Under the pieces are notes generated by a model. It was not told where the DNA came from. It saw only the letters and a list, made by a program, of their open reading frames with translations, and made no database searches. Positions 24,874-38,924 of a stretch of 40,539 nt of DNA are shown in pieces. The stretch comes from an uncultured Spirochaetaceae bacterium (GTDB lineage: Bacteria; Spirochaetota; Spirochaetia; Sphaerochaetales; Sphaerochaetaceae): the NCBI GenBank assembly GCA_945910645.1, contig CAMDZB010000011.1, positions 1-40,539 of the forward strand, in the 5' to 3' direction. Position numbers and translations under genes: made by a program. Numbering within the stretch: position 1 is the first letter of the stretch; each line of letters starts with the position of its first letter.

Positions 24874-25650
24874 CTATTCCCCACGCTGTAAGGAACACAT
24901 AAGCGGTACAATTGCAGCCCATTGCTTTATGTATTTCTTATACAGCAAGGAATATGCATTCTCATCTTTATCATCAAACGATTTTGTTAAACAATTCACA
25001 AGAAAATCACTCCCAAATAGAAATTTATTATATAAAGATTTAGGACATTCTCTAACAAAAGCCTTTACATCCGAAAAAGCTACATCACCATATACGTTGT
25101 CGTATCTTTTCATCAATGTGAGATTTAAAGATAAATCCTTTGTATGACACAAGACAAATTTAACATCACTATACAAACTAAACCATTTTTCAAACTTGTC
25201 TGCTCTTTCAAAGTCGCAAAGACCTGTGTGTATAAAAACAGGCCATTTTTTATCACGTGCAAATTCAAACAACTCTTCACAAAACCGTAGAGTCGCCTGA
25301 TTATTAAAGTCCCACACATTTGCTCTTGGATGAATTTTAAGTCCACAATAGTTGGCATCACGAATCATTTCGGTCACGCTAACACCGGCACTATACATAT
25401 TAGGCACACACCACAACAAAGGCTTAAACCCAAAGCCTACGCTTTTGGCATATTCACACCCCTCGTAAAATTCGTCTTTTATATGGCTTATTATTAAATT
25501 CATCTCTTCTCTATTTTCCCACGTCATACAAGACGTTGTTGAAGATACAAAAGCTCCAGAAACACCAACTTCTTTTAATATCTTAACAACTCTGTATGGC
25601 TGAAAATATAAAGTTCCATACTGTCCAATATGAACATGATAATCAACCAT
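24874..25650 (-). CDS. Metal-dependent amidohydrolase of the RiPP cluster
   Basis: The protein (258 residues from this start) has an amidohydrolase/TIM-barrel metal-site pattern: VDYHVHIG at the N-terminus (HxH), LKIHPR, WPVFIHTG and FVLCHTKD further on, and the late aspartate in FGSDFLVN. It would hydrolyse an amide, ester or carboxyl group of an unknown substrate. Its ATG overlaps the stop of the radical SAM gene by eight bases; an upstream TTG at 25677 with GGGAG before it is the alternative start. The tight coupling suggests it acts on the modified peptide or a modification intermediate, for example leader removal or side-chain hydrolysis (inference). It is not a protease of a known RiPP class. 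Confidence 0.75.
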   Translation of the reverse strand: MVDYHVHIGQYGTLYFQPYRVVKILKEVGVSGAFVSSTTSCMTWENREEMNLIISHIKDEFYEGCEYAKSVGFGFKPLLWCVPNMYSAGVSVTEMIRDANYCGLKIHPRANVWDFNNQATLRFCEELFEFARDKKWPVFIHTGLCDFERADKFEKWFSLYSDVKFVLCHTKDLSLNLTLMKRYDNVYGDVAFSDVKAFVRECPKSLYNKFLFGSDFLVNCLTKSFDDKDENAYSLLYKKYIKQWAAIVPLMCSLQRGE

Positions 25651-27079
25651 TTTTTTTGTTTTTTCTATATTTTTCAACTATCTCCCTTTGAAGTTTGGCA
25701 GCCTCACATGTTGATGGTGGCACATCGAATATACTTCCCGTTTTTGATTCGTTTGAATTTCTTGCGATACACAATTTACAGTAATTTCTATCGTCACAAG
25801 TTAAGCATTTTGGAAAGTCTTTCATACGAAGCTTTCGTAAATACAACACCTCCGGGGAATTATCCCATATATCTTTAAGTGTTTGCTTATTCAAATCTCC
25901 ACAATGATACTCCTGCCACCCTGCACAAGGATACACCATTCCATTTGCAACCATGCATAGTGTTGACATTCCAACTCCACACACTTTGTCATCTGCACTT
26001 ATATCATATTTAGTACTGGTCTCTCCCTCTTTTATGCTTTTTTGAAAAAACACATCATTCTCCAGTTGTCTTTCAATTGCTGTTTTTATATCATCAGCAT
26101 CAAGACGATTAACAAGGTTGTCCGTTGAATGGTCATATCGTGCCATTATTTCAAGATCCACAACAACCATACATTTATTGTTTTGTCCCCAATTAATCAC
26201 GTCTTGAAAAGAATCTTTATTTTGTTTCATCACAGGACAATTAATTTGAAGAGGTATGTTATTAGCAATAAGCCGTTCTATATTATCTTTTGTTTTACAA
26301 AATGAGCCTTTTACAGTTGTTATCGCATCGTGTACTTCCGGAATCATTGAATATAATGACACATTTACTATTGAATCGTTTTTGTATTTTAATGCTTGAA
26401 TTATGTCGTCTGTTAACAAAGTTAAATTAGACAAAACGGTGACTTGTAAATCCAAATCTTTAGCGTACTTTAGAAATTCAATAAAATTTGGATGAACCAT
26501 AGGCTCCCCACCGGAAAAAATGACTGTTAACACTCCCATTTCACTGCATTGTTTCAGAACGCTTTTCATTAATTCGGGCTTTATATCCGCGTTTTTGTAT
26601 TGATGAGGAATATAACAATGAACGCATCGCTCGTTGCATTTACTTGTGAGTTCAATATGAAAGGTTTCAAGATGTGGATGCGTTTTAAAATACTCTCCTA
26701 AAAAATGAGAGGACGACTCTTCTAAGTTTGAGTTTAAAGACAAAAAGTTTAGTTTCCCATTTAACGTTGAGTATTCAAAGCCCTCTTCTTTAAAATTTTC
26801 AATAGAGTCTACAGAAAACAAAAAATTGTCTTTAACCAATTCTTTATAGAAATCTTCAGCATCCTTCTTTATTTCATCACGAGTGATATTAGATTGATAA
26901 AACATCTCATAAAGTTCATCTGCTATCGCATCTATGCTTTTAGGCTCTCTTGATAGACGTTCAACAAAAGTTGCTCCCGTGTTATTTAACACCTTTTCCA
27001 CAGAAGAAGCAGGTTTGATGAGTAGGCCTATATCTCCATATCGCCTAAAATAACAATCCTTTTTCAATCCAAAATACAT
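25643..27079 (-). CDS. Radical SAM/SPASM peptide maturase with N-terminal PqqD-like domain
   Basis: The 478-residue enzyme has three parts. Residues 1-90 resemble a PqqD-like RiPP recognition element (RYGDIGLLIKP, then SIDAIADELYEMF). The radical SAM core has SKCNERCVHCY (Cys 148, 152, 155). The SPASM domain at about 365-460 has nine cysteines, including 367, 375, 385, 393, 425, 428, 434, 437 and 458, enough for two auxiliary iron-sulfur clusters. Such enzymes make thioether or carbon-carbon links in small Cys-containing peptides. It follows the Cys-rich precursor gene after a hairpin and has AAGGGG before its ATG. The class (ranthipeptide, sactipeptide or other) cannot be decided from sequence alone. 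Confidence 0.88.
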   Translation of the reverse strand: MYFGLKKDCYFRRYGDIGLLIKPASSVEKVLNNTGATFVERLSREPKSIDAIADELYEMFYQSNITRDEIKKDAEDFYKELVKDNFLFSVDSIENFKEEGFEYSTLNGKLNFLSLNSNLEESSSHFLGEYFKTHPHLETFHIELTSKCNERCVHCYIPHQYKNADIKPELMKSVLKQCSEMGVLTVIFSGGEPMVHPNFIEFLKYAKDLDLQVTVLSNLTLLTDDIIQALKYKNDSIVNVSLYSMIPEVHDAITTVKGSFCKTKDNIERLIANNIPLQINCPVMKQNKDSFQDVINWGQNNKCMVVVDLEIMARYDHSTDNLVNRLDADDIKTAIERQLENDVFFQKSIKEGETSTKYDISADDKVCGVGMSTLCMVANGMVYPCAGWQEYHCGDLNKQTLKDIWDNSPEVLYLRKLRMKDFPKCLTCDDRNYCKLCIARNSNESKTGSIFDVPPSTCEAAKLQREIVEKYRKNKKNG

Positions 27080-27120
27080 CTAGTTTCCCCTTTTGTTGAT
27101 ATAAATTATTTTATTTATAT

Positions 27121-27144
27121 TAAAAATGGGCTCTTTCGAACCCA
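27121..27144 (-). terminator. Attenuating hairpin after the precursor peptide gene
   Basis: On the minus strand TGGGTTC, a GAAA loop and GAGCCCA form a 7-bp stem with one G-T pair, followed by TTTTT. It lies seven bases after the precursor stop and 42 bases before the maturase ATG. Partial termination here would give more peptide than enzyme, a common layout in RiPP operons. Confidence 0.7.
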
Positions 27145-27151
27145 CTTATGT

Positions 27152-27265
27152 TTAACTGCATCGGCACGTTGCACAACAACCATATCCGTACTTATCAACG
27201 CAACCAGCACTGAAATTGCCGTTTGCTTTAGTCCCAGCAATCACTAAGGGTTTTGTATAAGCCAT
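27152..27265 (-). CDS. Cys-rich RiPP precursor peptide, 37 residues
   Basis: This short gene has a strong AGGAGG six bases before its ATG and encodes 37 residues. The first 21 form a likely leader (MAYTKPLVIAGTKANGNFSA, then G). The core holds five cysteines at positions 22, 30, 31, 34 and 36, with a Gly/Tyr-rich spacer and the end CCATCRCS. It lies between the P-loop gene and the PqqD/radical-SAM/SPASM gene, the usual place for a radical-SAM-modified precursor. No double-glycine protease site is obvious, and no exporter is nearby. Thioether crosslinks at the cysteines are the most likely modification (inference). Confidence 0.82.
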   Translation of the reverse strand: MAYTKPLVIAGTKANGNFSAGCVDKYGYGCCATCRCS

Positions 27266-27293
27266 ATCTTCCTCCTTTTAATTTTATATATCC

Positions 27294-27316
27294 AATTACG
27301 TCTTAAAAACGTAATT
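27294..27316. promoter_or_regulatory. 8-bp inverted repeat upstream of the precursor gene
   Basis: AATTACGT and ACGTAATT form a perfect inverted repeat around seven bases, between the P-loop stop and the precursor ribosome-binding site. No T run follows, so it is more likely an operator or mRNA-stabilising hairpin than a terminator. A weak -10-like TATAAA follows near 27280. Confidence 0.35.
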
Positions 27317-27318
27317 GT

Positions 27319-27831
27319 TTATACCACATTTATTTCTTTAAGTATTTCGTTGGAATGTTTTTTTATATCCGAATCTATTCTCTTATCACCATTACCGTAA
27401 TGAGTTGCTTTTATCGTATAATCTAAAACTTTCTCGCCAACTCTTAGTCCATCTATGAATTTTTCATACAATGCTTCATTCCTTGGATGATCTGTATTCT
27501 CTGATAACAACCAAAAATCAATTGGAGAAGGAGCACCTTTTACAAGGCACTCCATGATAAATAACAAATTATTAATAATTTCTTTTTGGTTATCACCAGG
27601 GCTTGTTATAACAATAGATATTTCTTCCCCTGCCTTATTTTTTCCTTTGAGCAAACAACGATGATCAGATGCTTTGCAATTAGGATCTTGAGTCTTAATA
27701 ACTTGTTCATCTACTTTCTCATAAACGTTAAAACCATACGTCGTCTTTAATTCATTATACACCTTATCTAAAATAGATGTTTTACCAGAATTGCTTGCAC
27801 CACTAACTTTGATAATTTTATTGAAAAGCAT
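27319..27831 (-). CDS. P-loop NTPase of the RiPP cluster
   Basis: The 170-residue protein begins with a Walker A motif, GASNSGKTS (residues 11-19), followed by a helix and a strand ending VITSPGDN, which could be the Walker B/switch region. It resembles small dNMP kinase- or MobB-type P-loop proteins but I cannot assign it. Five acidic or Cys-containing turns (DPNCKASDHRC) are notable. It is first in the operon, 53 bases upstream of the precursor. The leader next to its ATG contains nine consecutive G (27838-27846), partly acting as ribosome-binding site. A role in peptide maturation energy supply, immunity or regulation is possible (inference). Confidence 0.6.
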   Translation of the reverse strand: MLFNKIIKVSGASNSGKTSILDKVYNELKTTYGFNVYEKVDEQVIKTQDPNCKASDHRCLLKGKNKAGEEISIVITSPGDNQKEIINNLLFIMECLVKGAPSPIDFWLLSENTDHPRNEALYEKFIDGLRVGEKVLDYTIKATHYGNGDKRIDSDIKKHSNEILKEINVV

Positions 27832-28219: not shown

Positions 28220-28966
28220 TTATTTTTTTACTTGCCACCACGATACACTATTAAGGCGTATAACCAATATAAACACCAACAACAGCAACAACTCGACCGT
28301 TATGAAAGACAAAAACAAGAACAAGTCGCAAAAGAACAAAGCTATAAGATGAAGAGTGAGCAACATGCTGAACAACACAAGAAAGAAAAATACAAAAATA
28401 ATGTTGAGTTTTGACGGTGAATACGGGCCACTGTCCAGTTTGAATATATCTTCAGTTTTATTAAATTCAGATGTTAGGTCCAAATTAGGATCGTTTGCAT
28501 AGTTCTTCATTTTATCAATTACTCCGTGCTCAGGAGTATATATTCTTGATTCAACAGCGTCATAAGTTCCTTTTGCTCCTCTTGCTATTCTAAACCAAAT
28601 ATATGACACAATAATCCCCATTGTTGAAATTACACTTGCCAATGAATTAAACAGCGAATCCGACAATAACATAGGAATATTTTTAATGGAATGCAATTCT
28701 ACTATTTTAATTAGCAAGGCTCCGTACCCCGTGAGTATCAACACCAGGAATGTTGATACAAACACAGAACGCTGCCAAAATAATTGTAACTCTGTGTCGT
28801 ATCGCTTGTTTTGAAATTCCAGGTATTTGTAAAAAGCTTCACGCTCTTTTTCATTCTTTGACTTTTTTCTTGAAATATTATTTCTATTTGACTTTTTGCT
28901 TGAAATATTATTTCTATTTGATTGAATAGCAACTATTATTTGATTTACTCTTAATGGTTTTGGCAT
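28220..28966 (-). CDS. Multi-spanning membrane protein, RipA-like
   Basis: The 248-residue protein has a basic N-terminus, then LEFQNKRYDTELQLFWQRSV and about four membrane segments (around residues 68-90, 105-125, 185-205 and 215-235), ending in SWWQVKK. The FWQR motif before the first membrane segment resembles the RipA-type octameric membrane proteins, but I hold this loosely. A 30-bp tandem duplication (28863-28922) repeats SNRNNIS.KK near the N-terminus. An AAAGGA site precedes the ATG. It is the last gene of a minus-strand operon starting at the zinc-ribbon gene. Function unknown. Confidence 0.55.
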   Translation of the reverse strand: MPKPLRVNQIIVAIQSNRNNISSKKSNRNNISRKKSKNEKEREAFYKYLEFQNKRYDTELQLFWQRSVFVSTFLVLILTGYGALLIKIVELHSIKNIPMLLSDSLFNSLASVISTMGIIVSYIWFRIARGAKGTYDAVESRIYTPEHGVIDKMKNYANDPNLDLTSEFNKTEDIFKLDSGPYSPSKLNIIFVFFFLVLFSMLLTLHLIALFFCDLFLFLSFITVELLLLLVFILVIRLNSVSWWQVKK

Positions 28967-28981
28967 AAAAATTTTCCTTTA

Positions 28982-29311
28982 TTATTTCCAAAACTTATCG
29001 TCCTTATGACCGTCGATATAACCTTGAAGATAATCACGGTTTTTTGAATCTGGTGCACTAGGTGTTGTGTTATTCTTCCTATCGTCTGCTCCTTGAATAT
29101 AGCCCTCATAGTATTCTGGTTTTTTCTTTATATCTTGATCAATTTCTTTCTTTTCAATACTAAGCGAAATAAACTTGCAAACAAGATGAATGACAATTGA
29201 TGCAACAACAATCAAAAATACAAAGAGAATAAATTTAATTATATTTTCTACACTATTAAACTTAAACAAATTAATAATATTAACTAGCATTATTTGAAAA
29301 TCATCTTTCAT
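28982..29311 (-). CDS. Small single-span membrane protein
   Basis: The 109-residue protein has one long hydrophobic segment (about residues 24-48: FILFVFLIVVASIVIHLVC) and a charged C-terminal half with two GYI.G elements (EGYIQGADDRKNN and QGYIDGHKDDK). GGGAG precedes the ATG. It lies 15 bases before the RipA-like gene, so they are co-transcribed. I do not recognise the family. Confidence 0.55.
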   Translation of the reverse strand: MKDDFQIMLVNIINLFKFNSVENIIKFILFVFLIVVASIVIHLVCKFISLSIEKKEIDQDIKKKPEYYEGYIQGADDRKNNTTPSAPDSKNRDYLQGYIDGHKDDKFWK

Positions 29312-29336
29312 TAATATTTTTCTCCCTTTTTACCAC

Positions 29337-29696
29337 TTACTGTATATTATACTGTATATCTCCGTCTGTACAGTGAACAACAGAGAGAGGAAAATCATCC
29401 GCCCAATAAGAATCTTTACTTACATTTCTCCACTGTTCCCTCGTACCGGTATAATGTATCTCAGTAAGACCACTACATCCAAAGAAGGCCTCATACCCTA
29501 TTTCCGTTACGCTGTCAGGTATCGTAATACTTGTAAGACCACTACATCCATAGAAGGCTTCCCCCCCTATTACCGTTACGCTGTCAGGTATAGTAATACT
29601 TGTAAGACCACTACATTTATAAAAGGCATCGTATCCAATTGACGTTATTCCATCTTGTAACACCACTTCACGTAGCGTTTCATTACCATCATCGTC
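29337..29696 (-). pseudogene. BspA-type leucine-rich-repeat fragment
   Basis: The frame contains three LRR_5 repeats of about 23 residues (for example FYGCSGLTSITIPDSV) and a C-terminal end (YTGTREQW, then VHCTDGD) usual for BspA-like proteins. There is no ATG or signal peptide. The frame is closed by a TAG at 29697, just after the zinc-ribbon stop, and begins in mid-domain with NETLREVVLQDGITSIG. It is best explained as the surviving tail of a longer protein, perhaps once fused to another N-terminus. A GTG at 29664 could in principle start a 109-residue protein. Confidence 0.65.
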
Positions 29697-29699
29697 CTA

Positions 29700-29942
29700 T
29701 TACCACCAACCCTTTTTCTTAGAGTTTCTTCTTGCCTTGTTATCATTATATCCTTCAGAAAATGTCCTCCAAAGACTTGCTCCAAAGCTCTGACTTGAAC
29801 CACAATATGGACAATGTTTGGCTTCTTCTGGAATTAAATTGCCACACACTTCACACTTTTTATTATTGCCTAATATTGCCCCGCAAGACATACAATAACT
29901 CATACCATCAGGATTCTCTTTGCCACATTTTTTGCAAATCAT
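29700..29942 (-). CDS. Double zinc-ribbon protein
   Basis: The 80-residue protein has two zinc ribbons: ICKKCGKENPDGMSYCMSCG (residues about 2-21) and CEVCGNLIPEEAKHCPYCGS. A basic tail ends KKKGWW. AAAGGAGGG precedes the ATG. It opens a minus-strand operon under a promoter with a twelve-T spacer. Such small zinc-ribbon proteins in gut bacteria often precede membrane or LRR domains; a specific function cannot be given. Confidence 0.75.
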   Translation of the reverse strand: MICKKCGKENPDGMSYCMSCGAILGNNKKCEVCGNLIPEEAKHCPYCGSSQSFGASLWRTFSEGYNDNKARRNSKKKGWW

Positions 29943-29972
29943 AATTTTCCCTCCTTTTACAGAATATGTGAA

Positions 29973-30000
29973 ATTTTACCAAAAAAAAAAAACAAATCAA
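29973..30000 (-). promoter_or_regulatory. Zinc-ribbon operon promoter with a twelve-T spacer tract
   Basis: On the minus strand TTGATT (29995-30000) and TAAAAT (29973-29978) are spaced by 16 bases, of which twelve are consecutive T (29981-29992). The sequence around the -10 box (GTAAAATTTCAC) matches that of the RiPP promoter (GTAAAATCTCAC), suggesting a shared promoter type. Confidence 0.55.
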
Positions 30001-30111
30001 CATTCGGAAAAGACATAGGATTATGCCTGTATTATATTACGAAAGCACCCGACATCAAGTCGCGGATTATTATCAAAAGACACATATGCAACGTTTTTAG
30101 TATCCGATTAC

Positions 30112-31254
30112 TCAAAGATTATGTTTAAGGATAGCCAAATATTCACCAACTCCAAACACCCTATTCCTTTGTTTTTTACCATTAATCTCATTAACAATTC
30201 CCAAGTCTTTCATTTTTAAAACTATTGAAGACACACCATTATATGACAAGTTCAAGTCGCTTTGTGCCTTTCCTATACTAAAAATCGGATGTTCTTTTAT
30301 GTAATCGAGAAACAACCTCTGAACCATAGTTTTAGGTTTCAATATGTTTTCATATTTCTTGAAAATCTGATTTATTGCCTTTGACGTTTGTGCAACGTCT
30401 ACGGCTGTTTCGCTGACACCTTTTATAAAGAACTTTACCCATTGTTCATAATTACCGTTTTTTCTTACCTCCCCCAAACGATCGTAATACTCCCTTTGAT
30501 TGGCTTTTAAATACAACGACATATACAGTATCGGTTTTTTAATACACTCATATGAAAGCAACATAAGTGTGATAAGCATTCGACCTATCCTGCCATTACC
30601 GTCTAAGAATGGGTGTATTGTTTCAAATTGATAATGCACTAGTGCAACTTTTAGAAGTGCAACCATATCGGATGTGTTTATAAACTTCTCAAGTTCACTC
30701 ATGCACTCATTCATATCACTGACATTAGGAGGAACATAAACAGCTGTGTTTATATTGCTTTTAGAATTACCAATCCAATTTTGGCTTTTTCTAAACTCTC
30801 CGCGAGCCTTTTCACTTCCTCTGGTATTATCAAGAAGAATGGAATGGGTTTCACATAACAGCCTTGATGAAATAGGCAAAACATTCATTCTCTCTAACGC
30901 ATAGTTTAGTGCCTTAACATAGTTAACAACATCCTTTATATCCTCATCACTATCTGATGCAAATTCCGGAGATAACACATCTTCAAGTGTAGCTTGTGTA
31001 CCTTCTATTTGACTGCTTAAAAGTGCCTCCCTTCTTACATATGAGGCAATAAATAAATCTGTGTTTGGAATAAGTTCTGATGTTATGTTCATTTCAGAAA
31101 TATCGTTATACGCTTTTGTAAGAATAAATAACAATTCATTATCAATATTAAGTGACGGATAAGGTGGCAAAGCGTTTGGCCGATAAGAATAATACGAGGC
31201 ATCTTCCAAATAAACCTTTACATATTTTCCACTTCGTGAACTTATGTTTTCCAT
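30112..31254 (-). CDS. Fic-family AMP-transferase with winged-helix C-terminus
   Basis: The 380-residue protein has the Fic active site HPFLDGNGRIGR (about residue 213), which transfers AMP from ATP to protein hydroxyl groups. The inhibitory-helix motif SSQIEG (about residues 79-84) is N-terminal, so this is a class II, self-inhibited Fic protein. The N-terminal DUF4172-type region and a C-terminal winged helix (YIKEHPIFSIGKAQSDLNLS) are typical of the group. The ATG lies at the edge of the 216-bp repeat, which thereby supplies its upstream region; no clear ribosome-binding site is present. Targets are unknown. Confidence 0.88.
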   Translation of the reverse strand: MENISSRSGKYVKVYLEDASYYSYRPNALPPYPSLNIDNELLFILTKAYNDISEMNITSELIPNTDLFIASYVRREALLSSQIEGTQATLEDVLSPEFASDSDEDIKDVVNYVKALNYALERMNVLPISSRLLCETHSILLDNTRGSEKARGEFRKSQNWIGNSKSNINTAVYVPPNVSDMNECMSELEKFINTSDMVALLKVALVHYQFETIHPFLDGNGRIGRMLITLMLLSYECIKKPILYMSLYLKANQREYYDRLGEVRKNGNYEQWVKFFIKGVSETAVDVAQTSKAINQIFKKYENILKPKTMVQRLFLDYIKEHPIFSIGKAQSDLNLSYNGVSSIVLKMKDLGIVNEINGKKQRNRVFGVGEYLAILKHNL

Positions 31255-31460
31255 ACATCAATAATGCTTGTTATTTCATAAAATTGCAATATTACGAAAT
31301 AATGAGCGAATTTTCTCTCCGTTATTTCGCACATGATAGAGGTGAATCGGGCTTTTTAATACGATTCACCTGATATACTAAACCTGCATCTTTCAACCAA
31401 AGAAGAACTATGTCATGTCCGAAAAGTTGTACTTTGTGCACTACTTGAGGAAGGCCGTGC
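31245..31460. repeat. 216-bp repeat, copy 2, upstream of fic
   Basis: It is the partner of 27972-28187 in the same orientation, with the same inverted repeats (AGGTGAATCG/CGATTCACCT conserved). Its minus-strand end holds the fic start codon. The remaining bases to 31585 hold the leader of the next plus-strand gene (TAAGGAGGG before its ATG) and no other feature I can support. Confidence 0.85.
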
Positions 31461-31585
31461 GATCCTCGGAAAGATTTATTAAAAGTCTACAGAATTTCTC
31501 GGAAATGACAATTATTGAACATTTTGATATATTTATATCTACAAACTGATAATATGTTGTTTTTTACGCATCATAAGGAGGGAAA

Positions 31586-33184
31586 ATGAAAAAGATACAT
31601 TCCGTTTTAATTGCATTAGCACTAAGCCTTTTATGTATCGGTTGCCCGACTGGTAGCAGCGGAAAACTCTCTGCACCAATTCTGTCGCATAAAACAGGAG
31701 AATATGACTCCCCTATAACCGTAACGGTTTATTCTCACGACAGTTTTGCTGTAATGTATTATACAACAGACGGTTCAAAACCCTCTAAAGATCACGGAGC
31801 CTTTATATACAGCGGAAACACCATAGACATTGATAAGAATACAACATTAAGAATTATATCAACAGCTCCGGGCTATACCGATTCCGAGGAAACCAAGGCG
31901 GTATACACAATTAATTATCTTGAAAAACCCATTATCAGTGTATCGGACGGCACATATGCATATCAACAAACCGTTACAATAACATCAAATGATCCCGAAG
32001 CAAAGGTTTTTTATTCAACAAATCCCCAGCTGACAAGTTATACAGAATATAGCGCCCCCATTGACATTACCACCGATACCAAAATAATGGCATTTGCAAA
32101 AAAAGGTGATATTATCTCCAACACCGCGATATCAGAAATAAATATTTATAACGGAAGCGAACAGTTAATAGTATTTGGCAGAAAAGATACCAACAAAGGC
32201 GTTTTATACAGAAATACCGGAACAAAAGAAGTATCCGACAAATACGGAGCAACAGAGATGATTGAACTATCTAACGGATCAATTGGTCTAATAGGCTCTA
32301 ACAATACAACAGGTTATTTTGCAACATTGGATGCAAGCGATGAGATAAAAATTTACAATCTGCCGCAGAGCGGAGCCGGAAGCGACATATGTGAATATAA
32401 CGGCAATACCTACATATCAGGATGGGCAAGAGCTACAGGAAAACGGGTGCAGGCATATCTGTTTTATAAACAGGATGCAGAAGAATCATTTACTCCTATA
32501 TGCTTGGAAGAAGACACTGTTACGTCATTTTCCAAAGCATTCGGCGTTACAACAAAAGATGGTATTGTTTATGTTGTAGGAACAAAAGACATTGATGGGG
32601 TGAAAAAGCCCTACTACTGGAAGGTTGACTTAAATGTTTTAAACAATCCGTCGGTTGAGGGTGGAATAATTAAAGACATTCAAGGAGAAGCAAAGGATAT
32701 TGCAATAAGCCAGGACGGAACATTTTATATCACAGGGCAACTTAATAATGATTCGTATATATGGTTTGGCAGCAGTTTATCTTCACTCACAGAGGGACTA
32801 TTGTGTATTGCAGGCACAGGTGCAAAACTGTCAGTATCAGGCAATCGCGTTTTTGCCGTAAACAGCACAGGTAATCTTGGCATGCTTTATGAAATAAATA
32901 AAGACGCTACGGAAGGACACTATACCGACAACGCCTATTCTTTTGACGATGTTAAATTTGCAAATGTGTACGCAAAAGATGAAAACAACATATATATCAC
33001 GGGTTCTAAAGTTGACATAGCACCAGATGAGAAAACAACGCTTGGTTATTCTCTTTGGACAAAAGCAACCAGAAATCCCACAAGCGACTATTTTGAATTT
33101 GGAGATGCTGTTCTGCTTGATTCTACTAAAATCTCAGGTACTTATACAGAAAGAAACTCAGCTGTTGCCGTTATTGTAAAATAG
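31586..33184 (+). CDS. Lipoprotein with chitobiase C-terminal-type domains and a propeller-like region
   Basis: The 532-residue protein has a signal peptide with lipobox LLCIGC (Cys 20). Two beta-rich modules follow: ITVTVYSHDSFAVMYYTTDG and TVTITSNDPEAKVFYSTN. These match the CHB_HEX_C_1 pattern of chitobiase C-terminal domains, each of about 75 residues. From residue 190 on there are about six short repeats of the type IYVVGTKDIDG, TFYITGQLND and NIYITGSKVD, suggesting a beta-propeller. It is exported and probably binds a glycan or protein. AAGGAGGG precedes the ATG. No operon partner is visible. Confidence 0.75.
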   Translation: MKKIHSVLIALALSLLCIGCPTGSSGKLSAPILSHKTGEYDSPITVTVYSHDSFAVMYYTTDGSKPSKDHGAFIYSGNTIDIDKNTTLRIISTAPGYTDSEETKAVYTINYLEKPIISVSDGTYAYQQTVTITSNDPEAKVFYSTNPQLTSYTEYSAPIDITTDTKIMAFAKKGDIISNTAISEINIYNGSEQLIVFGRKDTNKGVLYRNTGTKEVSDKYGATEMIELSNGSIGLIGSNNTTGYFATLDASDEIKIYNLPQSGAGSDICEYNGNTYISGWARATGKRVQAYLFYKQDAEESFTPICLEEDTVTSFSKAFGVTTKDGIVYVVGTKDIDGVKKPYYWKVDLNVLNNPSVEGGIIKDIQGEAKDIAISQDGTFYITGQLNNDSYIWFGSSLSSLTEGLLCIAGTGAKLSVSGNRVFAVNSTGNLGMLYEINKDATEGHYTDNAYSFDDVKFANVYAKDENNIYITGSKVDIAPDEKTTLGYSLWTKATRNPTSDYFEFGDAVLLDSTKISGTYTERNSAVAVIVK

Positions 33185-33219
33185 TATGGAACTATGTGCC
33201 ATAAGAAAAAGAAGAGCAA

Positions 33220-33290
33220 GAAAGAACAAAAAGAGCTAACTCATTGTCCTCGAAGTAGACTTCGTCGTCTTCTTTTTTGGCATTTGTGTT
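33220..33290 (+). terminator. Weak terminator-like hairpin after the chitobiase-domain lipoprotein
   Basis: CGAAG and CTTCG (33250-33263) form a 5-bp stem with loop TAGA, followed by pyrimidines and TTTTTT (33272-33278). It is weak. The 116-base gap holds nothing else I can support. Confidence 0.3.
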
Positions 33291-33300
33291 TTTTGCTAGT

Positions 33301-33816
33301 TTAAAGAGTTGTGCGACAGAATATTCCGGTATTCTTTTCCCATTGGTAAGCCCATCGTTCGTCCCCATTCTCCAGTTTGATTATTCCACAATATTTAAAG
33401 CCCAACTTTAGCACCGTTTTTTGCATCGGTATATTATCCTTATGCGTGTCTATCCTAACATTTGGATATTGCTTAAGGCACCACTCTATGCATTTTGTCC
33501 CAACCCCTTTTTGATAAACGGCAACTGCGATTCTATGTATAAACCCGTAAGGTTTATCGTTCAGCCATTCCCCGTTGTAAATCTTATTATACGTTGGTTC
33601 CTCCCCTATAAAAAAACAAAACACACCAAGGAGTACATCATTCTCAGTGCAAACGTAGCAATGTCCTGCCCTTATATCTTTTAAGACTTTATCTAATATT
33701 TGATCTATGTTTGACCATTGAGTTAAATTACCCTCACTAACCATAAATTCACGTGCACGTAAGTAAATTATTTTAATATCTTCATACTCTTCAACTTTTG
33801 CCTTCCGTATTTCCAT
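33301..33816 (-). CDS. GNAT-family N-acetyltransferase
   Basis: I choose the ATG at 33816, where the protein begins MEIRKAKVEEYEDI, the usual first strand of the GNAT fold; a longer frame from a GTG at 33888 adds 24 residues that do not fit the fold. The core shows GFIHRIAVAVYQKGVGTKCIEW, a variant acetyl-CoA site (Q-K-G-V-G-T), and IDTHKDNIPMQKTVLKLGF. The substrate is unknown. It stands alone between a lipoprotein and the recombinase gene. Confidence 0.8.
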   Translation of the reverse strand: MEIRKAKVEEYEDIKIIYLRAREFMVSEGNLTQWSNIDQILDKVLKDIRAGHCYVCTENDVLLGVFCFFIGEEPTYNKIYNGEWLNDKPYGFIHRIAVAVYQKGVGTKCIEWCLKQYPNVRIDTHKDNIPMQKTVLKLGFKYCGIIKLENGDERWAYQWEKNTGIFCRTTL

Positions 33817-33917
33817 AAGCGTATTGTAACAGAAAGGAATAAGATTTTTACAGAAAAAGGAAGGAATCCCAGAAAATATAGGTTTCACATTTATAATTCC
33901 CTAAACAAGGAGTATAA

Positions 33918-34835
33918 ATGATGAAATACAGAGAATGGTTAAAGATATGGCTTGAAAACTACATAAAACCGTGTGTGCGAGAACGGACATATATGCGATA
34001 TGAACAAATAATTCGAATACACATAGAACCCAAAATTGGCGATCTACAAATTAAAAAAATAACATCGCTGGTTTTACAAACCTTAATCACTGAATTGTTA
34101 AATAATGGGAACACAAAAACTAAGGCGGGATTATCAAGTAACACAGTAAACAATATCATTTCCGTTATACAAGGCTCCATTAAAATGGCACATATGCTTG
34201 GCTACATAAAAGAAAATACGTCTTACGCCATCAAGCGCCCCCGTATTGATGAACACAAAATAGAGTGTTTTTCGCTTATAGAACAAAAGAAAATTGAAAA
34301 TGCAGTATTAAAAAGTGCAAAAACAAAACTCTTCGGCATAATTATATGTTTGTACACCGGACTTCGCATTGGGGAATTAATGGCACTAAGATGGAAAGAT
34401 ATAAACCTAACAAATGGTGTACTTATCGTTTCACATTCTTCCCACGATTCGAAAGGAGGTATTGTTTTTGATGAACCCAAAACTGAAAGTTCAAAACGTA
34501 TAATTCCATTACCAAAACAACTATTACCAAGGTTAAAACATATACAGAAAAACACCCATTCGGAATTTGTTATATCAAATGGAACGTCCCCTATTTCAGT
34601 ACGTTCTTATCAGCGAACTTTTGAACTGCTCTTAAAAAAATTAAGCATTAAACACAGAGGATTTCACTCTCTTCGTCATACATTCGCAACACGAGCTTTA
34701 GAGTGTGGAATGGACGTAAAAACCCTATCTGAAATTCTTGGGCACAAAAACCCAACTATTACGTTAAACCGATATGCTCACTCTTTATTAGAACACAAAG
34801 TTACAATGATGAATCGTCTAGGAGAGCTCTTATGA
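33918..34835 (+). CDS. Phage-type tyrosine recombinase (integrase)
   Basis: The 305-residue protein has an N-terminal SAM-like DNA-binding domain (WLENYIKPCVRERTYMRYEQ) and the complete catalytic set: TGLRIGELMALRW (first Arg), the KTESSKR lysine, HSLRHTFATRALE (HxxR), LGHKNP and the nucleophile in LNRYAH. AAGGAG precedes the ATG. It resembles integrases of Tn916-type and prophage elements, though no excisionase or structural genes are near. It may have carried the restriction-modification and toxin genes that follow. The gap to 35037 holds an inverted repeat (ATGTTCA/TGAACAT, 34834-34864) and the next promoter. Confidence 0.92.
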   Translation: MMKYREWLKIWLENYIKPCVRERTYMRYEQIIRIHIEPKIGDLQIKKITSLVLQTLITELLNNGNTKTKAGLSSNTVNNIISVIQGSIKMAHMLGYIKENTSYAIKRPRIDEHKIECFSLIEQKKIENAVLKSAKTKLFGIIICLYTGLRIGELMALRWKDINLTNGVLIVSHSSHDSKGGIVFDEPKTESSKRIIPLPKQLLPRLKHIQKNTHSEFVISNGTSPISVRSYQRTFELLLKKLSIKHRGFHSLRHTFATRALECGMDVKTLSEILGHKNPTITLNRYAHSLLEHKVTMMNRLGELL

Positions 34836-34923
34836 ATGTTCATAAAATATGCCATTCGCTGAACATTTAGATTTATATAAGCAAACTTGATGCTTTTCAA
34901 CAATAGTCAACAAATAAAAAACA

Positions 34924-34952
34924 TTAACTTTTTCTCCGTTATAGTCTATAAT
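34924..34952 (+). promoter_or_regulatory. Promoter of the type III restriction-modification operon
   Basis: TTAACT (34924-34929) and a perfect TATAAT (34947-34952) are spaced by 17 bases, about 85 bases before the mod ATG at 35038. GGAGG lies ten bases before that ATG. Confidence 0.5.
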
Positions 34953-35037
34953 ACGTACATAAACTGGCATATTCGATGAACAAAACTGTTTCTCATAGGG
35001 TTCATGGAATACCAAAAATCCATGGAGGAACATCCCG

Positions 35038-36723
35038 ATGTCAACAAACGTTTCAAAAGAAAAGCGTGATGCACTCATTTCAAAAATAAATGCTATTAAA
35101 GAGTACATCTTGTCTCATTCACAAGATGAAAATGCTTTAAATCTTCTTTCTTACACAAACGAGATTGAAAATGAACTCCGTGCTAAAAGATTTGGTCTTG
35201 TATTTGAGGAACATCTTGAAAAAATTGATGAAGTACTTTCAAATCATTTGCCATATCTCAAAGAGGAAGAAAAACTGTTTATAGATAACGGTGGTGAAAT
35301 GAATTTTCTCATTGAAGGAGACAACCTGGCTTCCTTAAATTTGCTGTTGAAAACCCACAAGGGCAAGATTGATTTAATTTACATAGATCCGCCTTACAAC
35401 ACGGGCAACAAGGATTTTATATACGATGATAATTTTGTTGACAGCACAGATACATTCCGCCACAGCAAGTGGCTTTCGTTTATGGAGAAACGCCTTAGAC
35501 TTGCTAGAAAACTGCTCTCTGAAAACGGTGTGATTTTCATAAGCATTGATGAACACGAATTTGCTGAATTGAAGTTGTTATGTGATAGTGTGTTTGGGGA
35601 AGATAAATTTGTAGCGTGTGTTTGTGTAAAAGGTAATCCAAGAGGTCGCCAATCAAGTACATATTTTGCACAAGTTCATGATTCTTTACTCGTTTATAGA
35701 CGGACAGAAAAAACAATGCTTATGGGCTTTCCAATAAGTGATGATGAAAAGAAAAAACGATTTAATAAATTAGACGAAAACAATGTTCCATATGAAGAGT
35801 GGGAATTGAGAAAAAGAGGAGCAGACTCGAAAAGACAAGATTCCCCTAATTTGTGGTTTCCTATTTATTATAATATAAAGTATGGTATTTCTACTAATAA
35901 AAAGTCTGATGATGATATTGTTATTTTGCCAAAATTAAGCGATGGCTCGGATGGTCGTTGGCGTTGGAGTAAGGAAAAAGTAGAAAAAGATAAATGTAGA
36001 TTGTATGTTAGAAAGAACAATAAGGATATATACAACATATATGAACGCAAATATATTGAAGAAAAATCAAAGCAATTAGCACCTACAATTTGGGACTATC
36101 CCGAGGTTAATACAGAATTAGGGACTAAAATTTTAAAGGAATTGTTACAAGGAGAAGCGGAGTTTAATTTTCCCAAACCCATAGGGTTGATTATTCGTAT
36201 TTTACTTATGTACCCATCTTCCTCTTCCACCGTTCTCGACTTCTTTGCAGGCAGTGGCACCACAGGACACGCTGTGTTGAAACTGAATGCAGAAGACGGA
36301 GGAAAACGCAAGTTTATACTTTGTACAAACAATGAAAACAACATTGCCAGGAACGTGTGCTATGAACGTATTAAGCGTGTTATCAACAAAGAAGAATATA
36401 AAGCAAGCCTTAAATATTTCAAAGTAGACTATTTGTCTATCAGCGATAAACTATACTACGAATATGCCGATGAATTGTTAAAGCATGTTCGTGAACTTGT
36501 AGAGCTGGAAAACGGCATAAACTTTAATGACAATAGCGAAATTGCAATTATTCTTACTGAAGATGAACTTGACGAGTTTACAAAAACTATCCCGTCCTCA
36601 TGTAAAAAAATATACCTTGGACACGATATCTTACTTTCTCTTGACCAAGAACAAGAACTGAAAAAGCGAAACATTCAGATAAATATAATCCCCGATTACT
36701 ACTACAACGAGGAGAGCATCTAA
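35038..36723 (+). CDS. Type III restriction-modification methyltransferase (Mod)
   Basis: The 561-residue protein methylates DNA at adenine N6. The catalytic motif DPPYNTG (residues 117-123) comes before the S-adenosylmethionine motif DFFAGSGTTGHAV (about 400), the order of beta-class methyltransferases and of type III Mod proteins. The central region (about 200-340) is the variable target-recognition domain. The N-terminal 90 residues are helical. I see no simple sequence repeat in the gene that would make it phase-variable. It overlaps the res gene by one base (TAATG). Confidence 0.9.
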   Translation: MSTNVSKEKRDALISKINAIKEYILSHSQDENALNLLSYTNEIENELRAKRFGLVFEEHLEKIDEVLSNHLPYLKEEEKLFIDNGGEMNFLIEGDNLASLNLLLKTHKGKIDLIYIDPPYNTGNKDFIYDDNFVDSTDTFRHSKWLSFMEKRLRLARKLLSENGVIFISIDEHEFAELKLLCDSVFGEDKFVACVCVKGNPRGRQSSTYFAQVHDSLLVYRRTEKTMLMGFPISDDEKKKRFNKLDENNVPYEEWELRKRGADSKRQDSPNLWFPIYYNIKYGISTNKKSDDDIVILPKLSDGSDGRWRWSKEKVEKDKCRLYVRKNNKDIYNIYERKYIEEKSKQLAPTIWDYPEVNTELGTKILKELLQGEAEFNFPKPIGLIIRILLMYPSSSSTVLDFFAGSGTTGHAVLKLNAEDGGKRKFILCTNNENNIARNVCYERIKRVINKEEYKASLKYFKVDYLSISDKLYYEYADELLKHVRELVELENGINFNDNSEIAIILTEDELDEFTKTIPSSCKKIYLGHDILLSLDQEQELKKRNIQINIIPDYYYNEESI

Positions 36724-38924
36724 TGGAACTAATGGATTTTCAAAAAAATGCAATTAAAGAATTACTCAGTGCAATGAACGATGATAAAATTCGTGAAATC
36801 ATTCTAAAAAGCCCAACTGGAAGTGGCAAAACCATAATGCTCTCTCACTTTATGAGTAAATACACAAGAGAAAAGTCAAAAACCGTTTTCGTGTGGCTTA
36901 CTCCAGGAAAAGGAAATCTCGAAGAACAGAGCAAAACAAAAATGGATAAATACATTCACAATGCTTCCACTAAACTACTCTCCGATGTAATGACAAATGG
37001 TTTTGAAGAAAACGATTTTTGTTTTATCAACTGGGAAAAACTCACAAAAAAGGGCAACAATGCTCTTAAAGAAAGTGAAAGAACTAATTTTCTTGAATGG
37101 GTAGAAAAGGCATTAAACAATGGGCTTTCATTTAAAATAATAGTGGATGAAAGCCACCAAAACTTTACAGAAAAAGCCGATAGTATTATACAACTTTTTC
37201 ACACAGATAAAATCATTCGCTCGTCGGCCACTCCCAAAAAAGATAATAAAGCAAAACTTATTGAAATTAAAGAAGAAGATGTTATCGGCGAGGGACTTAT
37301 AAAAAAATTACTCGTTATAAACGAAAATTTTCCTCAAGTGATAAAAACAGACAATCAAACTTATTATCTTCTTGAACAAGCCGTAAAAAAACAAATAGAA
37401 ATTCAATCTGTTTTTGTATCAAAAGACACTTCTATTAATCCCCTTATTATTGTACAAATACCAAACAATAGCACCGCACTTTTAGAAACAGTAAAAAAGT
37501 ATTTTAAAGATCTTAATATTACAACTGAAAACGGAAAACTTGCAATTTGGCTTTCTGATGAGCACAAAAACATAGAAAGCATTTCTGATAACAATGCTGA
37601 GCAAAAAGTTTTAATTATGAAACAAGCCATAGCAACAGGATGGGATTGCCCAAGGGCCTACATCTTAGTGAAACTTCGTGAAAATATGGATGAAACTTTT
37701 GAAATTCAAACAATAGGTAGAATCCGTCGTATGCCAGAGGCAAAGCATTATGAAAATCATCTACTTGATTGCTGCTATCTTTACACATTTGACGAAAAAT
37801 TCGTATCCGGTGTTAAGATGGCATTAGGTAAAGGAGCACTAGAATCAAAAGAGCTTTTTCTTAAAAACGAATATAAAAATATCACATTAATATCAGAGCA
37901 AAGAGGAATATTAACAGACATAACCACAGATCAAAGAAGAACCAGAAGTTCCATAAACAAGCATTTCAGAAATACTTTCAATCTAACCAATGACAAGAAA
38001 AAAAATAAGGAACAACTAGCATCCCACGAATTCAAATTTTCAGATACTATAGATACTTACACTAAATCTGGAAATATTTCTAACATTTCAGAATCAAAAA
38101 GTGTCAATAATCTTAATATTATAACCGTCAAAGAAGTTCCTAACACACATAAACACGGTCAAGATTTACGTCATGCAATTGGATTAATCGCTCTTGAAAT
38201 TAACAAAGACTACAACACAACGAGAAGTATAATAGACTGCCTGTTCTTTGAGAAAATTCAATATCAGGACAAATTACTATCTTTAAATGCAAAAGAACTT
38301 TATTCTTTTGTATTAAACAATGTTGATTTGTTAAGACACAATTTTCGCAACGCTATGGCCACACAACTTCAAGAGAGAAATATCGATTCTCTTTCTCTCA
38401 AATCTCAAAAAGAATTCAAGATTCCTCACACTCTTAATTTTACATACAACGCAAACAGTAAAGACCAAAGTGAAAGTGAAAAAAATGTTTATAAAGGATA
38501 CCTGTTTTCAGCAGAACCACGTTCAGCCTCAGAAAAAAAATTCGAAAACTTTTGTGAAGAATCAAATGCAGTTGAATGGCTATATAAAAACGGAGATAAG
38601 GGGGGTGAATACTTTTCTATAGTGTACGAAGATAACAGCGGCAAACAAAAACTGTTCTATCCCGACTACATATTATCTGTAAAAGGTGAAACATGGATTG
38701 TGGAAACAAAAGGCGGATTTGACAAAGAAGGAAACAGCGAAGACATCGATATATTTTCAGAAAAAAAATTTGAGGCATTAAAAAACTATCTTCATACTTA
38801 TAAATTGAAGGGCGGTTTCGTCCGATACGACACAAAAAGCGAAAAACTTTGCATTTGCCTTAATAACTATACCAACGACATTAATTCTGATGATTGGCAA
38901 CTTCTTAAAAACGTTTTCCACTAA
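36723..38924 (+). CDS. Type III restriction enzyme, helicase/nuclease subunit (Res)
   Basis: The 733-residue protein has the helicase Walker A motif SPTGSGKT (30-37), IVDESHQNF (DExH box, about 141), SSATP (motif III) and IQTIGRIRRM (motif VI). The C-terminal nuclease motif is YPDYILSV followed by WIVETKGGFD (PD-(D/E)xK, about 645-665). With Mod it forms the restriction complex that cuts DNA bearing two unmethylated sites. Both subunits look intact. It is shorter than classical Res proteins (about 900-1000 residues). Its stop overlaps the convergent antitoxin gene by a few bases. Confidence 0.9.
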   Translation: MELMDFQKNAIKELLSAMNDDKIREIILKSPTGSGKTIMLSHFMSKYTREKSKTVFVWLTPGKGNLEEQSKTKMDKYIHNASTKLLSDVMTNGFEENDFCFINWEKLTKKGNNALKESERTNFLEWVEKALNNGLSFKIIVDESHQNFTEKADSIIQLFHTDKIIRSSATPKKDNKAKLIEIKEEDVIGEGLIKKLLVINENFPQVIKTDNQTYYLLEQAVKKQIEIQSVFVSKDTSINPLIIVQIPNNSTALLETVKKYFKDLNITTENGKLAIWLSDEHKNIESISDNNAEQKVLIMKQAIATGWDCPRAYILVKLRENMDETFEIQTIGRIRRMPEAKHYENHLLDCCYLYTFDEKFVSGVKMALGKGALESKELFLKNEYKNITLISEQRGILTDITTDQRRTRSSINKHFRNTFNLTNDKKKNKEQLASHEFKFSDTIDTYTKSGNISNISESKSVNNLNIITVKEVPNTHKHGQDLRHAIGLIALEINKDYNTTRSIIDCLFFEKIQYQDKLLSLNAKELYSFVLNNVDLLRHNFRNAMATQLQERNIDSLSLKSQKEFKIPHTLNFTYNANSKDQSESEKNVYKGYLFSAEPRSASEKKFENFCEESNAVEWLYKNGDKGGEYFSIVYEDNSGKQKLFYPDYILSVKGETWIVETKGGFDKEGNSEDIDIFSEKKFEALKNYLHTYKLKGGFVRYDTKSEKLCICLNNYTNDINSDDWQLLKNVFH

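What the first reader, a model, noticed from the sequence alone, without database searches (positions are those of the whole stretch)
24874..27831. Compact RiPP cluster: Cys-rich 37-residue precursor, PqqD/rSAM/SPASM maturase, amidohydrolase and P-loop NTPase
The precursor gene (27152-27265) is short enough to be overlooked. It has a perfect ribosome-binding site, a plausible leader and five cysteines in the last 16 residues, and it sits before an enzyme with a recognition-element-like N-terminus, a radical SAM core and a nine-cysteine SPASM domain. A metal-dependent amidohydrolase overlapping the maturase and a P-loop protein heading the operon are not standard parts of known ranthipeptide or sactipeptide operons, and no exporter or protease is present. 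The product class and the roles of the two extra enzymes may be undescribed.
Basis: partly seen in the sequence, partly recalled or inferred. Interest (0 to 1): 0.8.

Follow-up and report, generated by a model that had tools for sequence, protein, structure and literature searches.

The report
Radical-SAM peptide cluster with hypervariable core
A gut spirochaete carries a small gene set that makes and chemically modifies a cysteine-rich peptide; it belongs to a widespread family, absent from the protein-family libraries searched, in which the enzyme-guiding half of the peptide is conserved while the active half changes even between near-identical gene clusters.

Summary

The peptide is very probably a real RiPP precursor. 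A recognisable precursor with a conserved leader (M-x-Y-x-KP-x-V/I-x-A-Q…A-A-G-C) lies upstream of 80 of 85 related maturases. Four of the five exceptions have little or no upstream DNA.

The AH is a recurrent partner: it lies downstream of 44 of 79 scorable maturases, with its metal site intact. The P-loop protein is occasional (4 loci).

Leaders are conserved but cores diverge. Among pairs with maturases at least 90% identical, leaders average 96% identity and cores 54%. In one pair maturases and leaders are identical and cores only 33% identical. A sister clade does the opposite: an almost invariant peptide (…RPNSKPSGRPCNPP…), no AH, across several phyla and unannotated on seven conjugative plasmids.

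NCBIfam, Pfam and PHROGs have no model for the peptide, NCBIfam none for the maturase at its cut-offs, and the open papers searched do not describe it. Linkage chemistry, AH reaction and biological role are unproven. Verdict: new variant of a known kind (radical-SAM RiPP).

The parts
27319..27831 (-). P-loop NTPase, 170 aa, Walker A GASNSGKTS; first gene of the operon; occasional accessory
   Evidence: ORF; homologues next to the same maturase family in paralog locus C4 and in Treponema loci L041 and L057; in 393 spirochaete genomes its only other hits lie beside this maturase
27152..27265 (-). RiPP precursor, 37 aa; leader residues 1-22 (MAYTKPLVIAGTKANGNFSAGC), variable core 23-37 (VDKYGYGCCATCRCS)
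   Evidence: leader HMM hits upstream of relatives, 80 of 85 loci; single copy of this leader type in the genome
27110..27160 (-). Terminator-like hairpin (TGGGTTC-GAAA-GAGCCCA then TTTTT) between precursor and maturase; probable attenuator setting precursor in excess
   Evidence: fold -14.2 kcal/mol, z -4.7 against dinucleotide shuffles; similar hairpins in 18 of 80 loci versus 2% of shuffles
25643..27079 (-). Radical SAM/SPASM maturase, 478 aa, PqqD-like RRE at residues 31-86, CxxxCxxC at 148/152/155, SPASM Cys 367-458
   Evidence: Pfam; Cys conservation; alignment
24874..25677 (-). Amidohydrolase (Amidohydro_2), 267 aa, overlaps the maturase by 35 nt; invariant H16, H116, H150, H178, D224 and H14 in at least 90%
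   Evidence: Pfam; alignment of 42 homologues; TIM-barrel model pLDDT 91

Best explanation
This is a radical-SAM RiPP cluster. Shown by sequence: a conserved precursor, a maturase with a PqqD-type recognition domain and auxiliary Fe-S cluster motifs, and a downstream metal amidohydrolase recur as a unit. Inferred: the Y-x-KP-x-V/I leader docks on the PqqD domain; the maturase then installs radical cross-links at the conserved cysteines (GC near the leader junction and C-x-x-C near the C-terminus), tying the variable stretch between them into a loop; the AH acts next on the modified peptide, most simply as a trimming hydrolase, less likely as a decarboxylase. A hairpin after the precursor gene keeps precursor above enzyme. 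The P-loop protein is a lineage-specific accessory, not a core enzyme. The loop is under diversifying pressure, so the product most likely acts on a fast-changing partner, as a narrow-spectrum antagonistic or signalling peptide.
For: Precursor upstream of 80 of 85 related maturases. PqqD, Radical_SAM and SPASM domains with all AdoMet and seven SPASM cysteines conserved. AH downstream of 44 of 79 scorable loci, often overlapping the maturase, with conserved metal ligands. AH goes with cores bearing C-x-x-C: 40 of 42 AH-positive versus 9 of 32 AH-negative loci. Leader 96% versus core 54% identity in pairs with maturases at least 90% identical; L047 and L051 have 100% identical maturase and leader but 33% identical core. 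Same leader/core contrast in the genus's own paralog locus.
Against: No exporter or leader peptidase was recognised near the operon, so release of the product is unexplained; the relatives' flanks were not searched exhaustively for one. AH is missing downstream in several loci with the same core type (L027, L028, L046, L062), so it is not strictly required there or is encoded elsewhere. The AH/C-x-x-C association is confounded by ancestry: too few independent pairs for a test. No maturase family in NCBIfam matched above cut-off, so the cross-link chemistry is a guess.
Confidence: 0.6

Rival explanations
1. The peptide becomes a metal-binding or redox cofactor-like product (as PQQ or mycofactocin are made from peptides), serving the producer's own physiology.
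For: A sister clade has an almost invariant peptide across several phyla (mean core identity 83% while maturases average 68%), as expected for a fixed product. Cys-rich cores could bind metal.
Against: In the window's own group the core is the least conserved part and changes while enzymes and leader stay identical, unlike a cofactor.
Confidence: 0.15
2. The AH is an unrelated metabolic enzyme that shares the operon by accident.
For: PF04909 members are mostly small-molecule enzymes (general knowledge); the nearest structures are decarboxylases, hydrolases and an uncharacterised protein.
Against: It recurs beside this maturase in 44 loci of several phyla; in 61 related genomes the only other hits are weak (E 1e-4 to 1e-3).
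Confidence: 0.12
3. The P-loop protein is a core modifying enzyme, for example a kinase that phosphorylates or activates the peptide.
For: Found in the operon in four loci, including two paralogous loci of this genome with different precursors.
Against: Absent from about 95% of loci; shared by L041 and L057 whose cores differ, while L057's core resembles those of L039 and L043, which lack it. Fold search gave no significant match.
Confidence: 0.1
4. The maturase modifies a partner protein encoded between precursor and maturase, and the peptide is a decoy or regulator.
For: Many loci carry unrelated small ORFs in that position.
Against: Many other loci, the window among them, have no ORF there, and only the peptide is constant.
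Confidence: 0.05

Closest known systems
Sactipeptides / ranthipeptides (SPASM maturases such as AlbA, SkfB, CteB, PapB)
   Same: Cys-rich short precursor, radical SAM plus SPASM maturase, recognition domain at the N-terminus
   Different: Maturase below the curated cut-off of every such NCBIfam model that it hit; precursor matches no model; extra amidohydrolase; no exporter recognised beside the operon; linkage unknown
Bottromycin amidohydrolase PurAH/BotAH
   Same: A metal amidohydrolase inside a RiPP pathway; PurAH removes the follower peptide (PMC10885120)
   Different: Bottromycin has a follower and no canonical leader (PMC10885120); here PF04909, nearest solved relatives 3CJP and decarboxylase/PDC hydrolase folds; PurAH was not among the listed matches, which does not exclude kinship
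Lasso-peptide leader recognition by a PqqD-like B1 protein
   Same: Leader motif Y-x-x-P resembles the lasso recognition motif (from general knowledge)
   Different: RRE fused to a radical SAM enzyme; no lasso cyclase or B2 protease among the four genes
PQQ and mycofactocin maturases (PqqE, MftC)
   Same: PqqD-type recognition with radical SAM/SPASM
   Different: Score far below both models' cut-offs; variable rather than fixed peptide in this group (the sister clade's fixed peptide resembles them in that respect)

Membership tests
Radical SAM RiPP (general) | Short precursor gene with conserved leader and separate core next to the maturase | tested here: met
   80 of 85 loci; leader/core contrast
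Radical SAM RiPP (general) | Radical SAM core, SPASM domain and RRE domain | tested here: met
   Pfam above cut-offs; Cys conservation
Radical SAM RiPP (general) | Ribosomal peptide is actually modified | not testable with these tools
   needs mass spectrometry
Sactipeptide | Maturase matches a sactipeptide maturase model (AlbA, SkfB, StsB) | tested here: not met
   81, 66 and 73 bits against cut-offs 850, 300 and 625
Sactipeptide | Cys sulfur to alpha-carbon thioether | not testable with these tools
   chemistry unknown
Ranthipeptide | Maturase matches PapB-type model | tested here: not met
   64 bits against cut-off 340; other ranthipeptide maturases had no separate test here
Ranthipeptide | Cys sulfur to beta- or gamma-carbon thioether | not testable with these tools
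   chemistry unknown
Amidohydrolase superfamily (PF04909) | TIM barrel with HxH, His, His, Asp metal site | tested here: met
   Pfam 37.8 bits over cut-off 26.4; H16, H150, H178, D224 invariant, H14 at least 90%; model matches 3CJP at Z 17.6
PurAH/BotAH-like RiPP amidohydrolase | Structural or sequence kinship with PurAH | tested here: inconclusive
   PurAH not among listed structures; absence is not exclusion
Known NCBIfam/Pfam/PHROGs precursor families | Precursor matches a model | tested here: not met
   no hits for the window peptide in any of the three; none in NCBIfam for three relatives

The most novel reading that the evidence does not exclude
A distinct RiPP class in which a PqqD-radical SAM enzyme cross-links a peptide between a GC and a C-x-x-C anchor around a loop that is swapped or rapidly diversified, and a dedicated amidohydrolase performs a second, new reaction on it; the loops specify targets in bacterial competition, and a fixed-sequence branch of the same class travels as a two-gene cassette on conjugative plasmids.
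Probability: 0.3. Interest if true: 0.82.

Novelty: new variant of a known kind. Interest (0 to 1): 0.64.

Why it matters
The family spans Spirochaetota, Bacillota, Bacteroidota, Synergistota, Elusimicrobiota, Actinomycetota and Pseudomonadota by record title, largely in animal and insect gut communities. Its peptide is short enough to be missed by annotation: no feature is annotated under it on the seven plasmids that carry it. One leader and maturase family serving many different cores suggests a maturase tolerant of core sequence, useful for peptide engineering, and a dedicated amidohydrolase suggests chemistry not yet described with radical SAM peptides. The contrast between a hypervariable branch and a near-invariant branch makes the question of function directly testable.

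Tried and rejected
Fold search of the P-loop protein: no match at E below 0.001 (model pLDDT 75, four sequences), so no assignment. P-loop protein in plasmids and viral contigs: none. AH in plasmids: none. PADLOC: only the generic radical SAM core of the maturase matches viperins; not pursued because SPASM and precursor do not fit. ABC-transporter signature scan: it matched only the maturases' own GGEP motif and one unrelated protein; this is a crude test and no exporter search with family models was made in the relatives. A direct link between core and interposed gene (immunity pairing): L041 and L057 share the P-loop gene but not the core, while L039 and L043 share core and interval; mixed, so not claimed. 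E. coli genome collection: no copy of the plasmid cassette by megablast. Text search for peptide motifs and for amidohydrolase with radical SAM RiPPs in the open library: nothing relevant; subscription journals and preprints were not searchable. Empty-site comparison in sister genomes: the contig ends just past the metallo-beta-lactamase gene in G001; in G002 only that gene was identified as a match and no nucleotide-level synteny was found. The counts of synonymous and other changes were not used, because pairs are not independent.

Full report
Observation. The four ORFs exist as described on the minus strand and read in the order P-loop protein, peptide, maturase, amidohydrolase. Pfam confirms PqqD, Radical_SAM and SPASM in the maturase and Amidohydro_2 in the last gene, all above cut-offs. 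No NCBIfam model is met by any of the four proteins; the maturase's best score is 122 bits against a cut-off of 500.

Relatives. A scan of 84,980 species genomes with the maturase alignment found 375 related stretches, of which the best 80 were fetched; two viral contigs, the window, a paralog in the same genome (contig C4) and its orthologue in a sister species complete a set of 85. This set is chosen by similarity to the window maturase, so the proportions below describe near relatives, not all radical SAM enzymes.

Precursor. A leader profile finds a short ORF with a ribosome-binding site ahead of most maturases, and inspection adds a few; in total 80 of 85 loci have one. Of the five others, four have the maturase at or within about 100 nt of the contig end and one (L088) has 614 nt upstream without a recognisable precursor. 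The leader consensus in the main group is MAYTKPxVxAQNxxxGSYAAGC, followed by a variable stretch and C-x-x-C. The window's nearest relatives, from Clostridia (L015, L016), end in the same CRCS as the window peptide. The profile was built from a dozen leaders of these same loci, so its E-values for those are not independent evidence; the recurrence at the same place before the maturase is.

Hypervariable core. For pairs with maturases at least 90% identical, leaders are on average 96% and cores 54% identical (18 pairs); for 80-90%, 87% and 41%, with the core less conserved in all 91 pairs. Pairs overlap, so these are descriptive figures, not independent trials. L047 and L051 share an identical maturase and leader but have cores 33% identical; the DNA alignment shows divergence on both sides of the leader. 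The paralog locus of this genus shows the same: sister species share MKYxKPQAxKVVNMG but differ in the core, keeping two cysteines.

Amidohydrolase. It is downstream of 44 of 79 scorable maturases, often overlapping the end of the maturase gene. The metal ligands are conserved across 42 homologues. The model (pLDDT 91) matches 3CJP (an uncharacterised amidohydrolase) at Z 17.6, then decarboxylases, 2-pyrone-4,6-dicarboxylate hydrolases and isoaspartyl dipeptidases within about 3 Z units, so the fold does not choose between hydrolysis and decarboxylation. AH-positive loci nearly always have C-x-x-C cores (40 of 42 versus 9 of 32), but ancestry is shared and only about two independent pairs are informative.

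P-loop protein. It occurs with the maturase in the window, in C4, and in Treponema loci L041 and L057. It is therefore linked but optional. L041 and L057 share it with different cores, while L057's core resembles those of L039 and L043, which lack it; this argues against its being tied to one core.

Regulation. A hairpin followed by a T run sits between precursor and maturase (fold z -4.7). Comparable hairpins occur in 18 of 80 loci against 2% of shuffles and 7 of 79 control stretches. This fits partial termination that yields more precursor than enzyme, an inference.

Sister clade. Nineteen maturases form a supported clade in which no AH was seen; where a precursor was found (17) it is nearly invariant, M-x-Y-x-KPxxLAQSTxxMAECRPNSKPSGRPCNPPxPGGR, mean core identity 83% with maturases at 68%. 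Seven conjugative plasmids of E. coli, Salmonella and Photobacterium carry it with identical 38-aa peptides and no annotated feature there. In L097, L098 and L099 the two genes sit beside a recombinase gene.

Context. The operon lies in a stretch of about 33-36% G+C next to genes at 44-49%, with an 8xMP membrane protein, a Fic protein, a tyrosine integrase and genes of type III restriction-modification type upstream. The sister species searched lack this maturase copy. With nearest relatives in Clostridia and Synergistaceae, horizontal acquisition is likely.

Interpretation and limits. Membership in radical SAM RiPPs is well supported by gene content; assignment to sacti- or ranthipeptides is not, since the models tested were not met and the chemistry cannot be seen in sequence. 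The biological role is inferred from core variability. The library of papers is open-access only, so absence of a description is not proof of novelty.

Noticed in passing
L097:4809-6437, L098:4807-6428, L099: Unannotated 38-aa peptide (MSYSKPTVLAKSSTYMAQCRPNSKPSGRPCNPPGPSGR) plus maturase as a two-gene cassette on conjugative plasmids of E. coli, Salmonella and Photobacterium, beside recombinase genes.
   Followed up: partly
L064, L066, L068, L070, L072, L075, L076, L077, L079-L082, L090, L092, L093, L095, L096: Almost invariant precursor across phyla without an amidohydrolase; several have TPR-repeat protein genes nearby.
   Followed up: partly
L047:2604-3148 versus L051:229-773: Identical maturase and leader but different core, with the first part of the next gene (113 aa, one predicted membrane span) also diverged, as if a block had been exchanged.
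   Followed up: partly
L022:4582-5001, L029:4651-5001, L035:1871-2182, L037:4634-4975, L040:3418-3756, L061:794-1297: Unrelated small ORFs between precursor and maturase differ from locus to locus (one a PD-(D/E)XK nuclease); possible immunity or accessory genes.
   Followed up: partly
window 28220-38924: AT-rich island with an 8xMP membrane protein, Fic protein, tyrosine integrase and type III restriction-modification-like genes next to the operon.
   Followed up: partly
L002:1489-3484: Second, divergent P-loop/precursor/maturase locus in the same genome; maturase and precursor conserved in a sister species, no amidohydrolase.
   Followed up: yes
window 26237-26239 (maturase Cys281, minus strand): A cysteine outside the AdoMet and SPASM motifs is conserved in all maturases aligned; role unknown.
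   Followed up: no
L057:6464-8860: Two amidohydrolase genes flank an ion-channel-like protein (related to a PF00520 protein in L069) in one cluster.
   Followed up: no
L025, L035, L045, L047, L051, L061, L067, L089, L094: Clusters with one or more additional radical SAM genes beside the main maturase.
   Followed up: no
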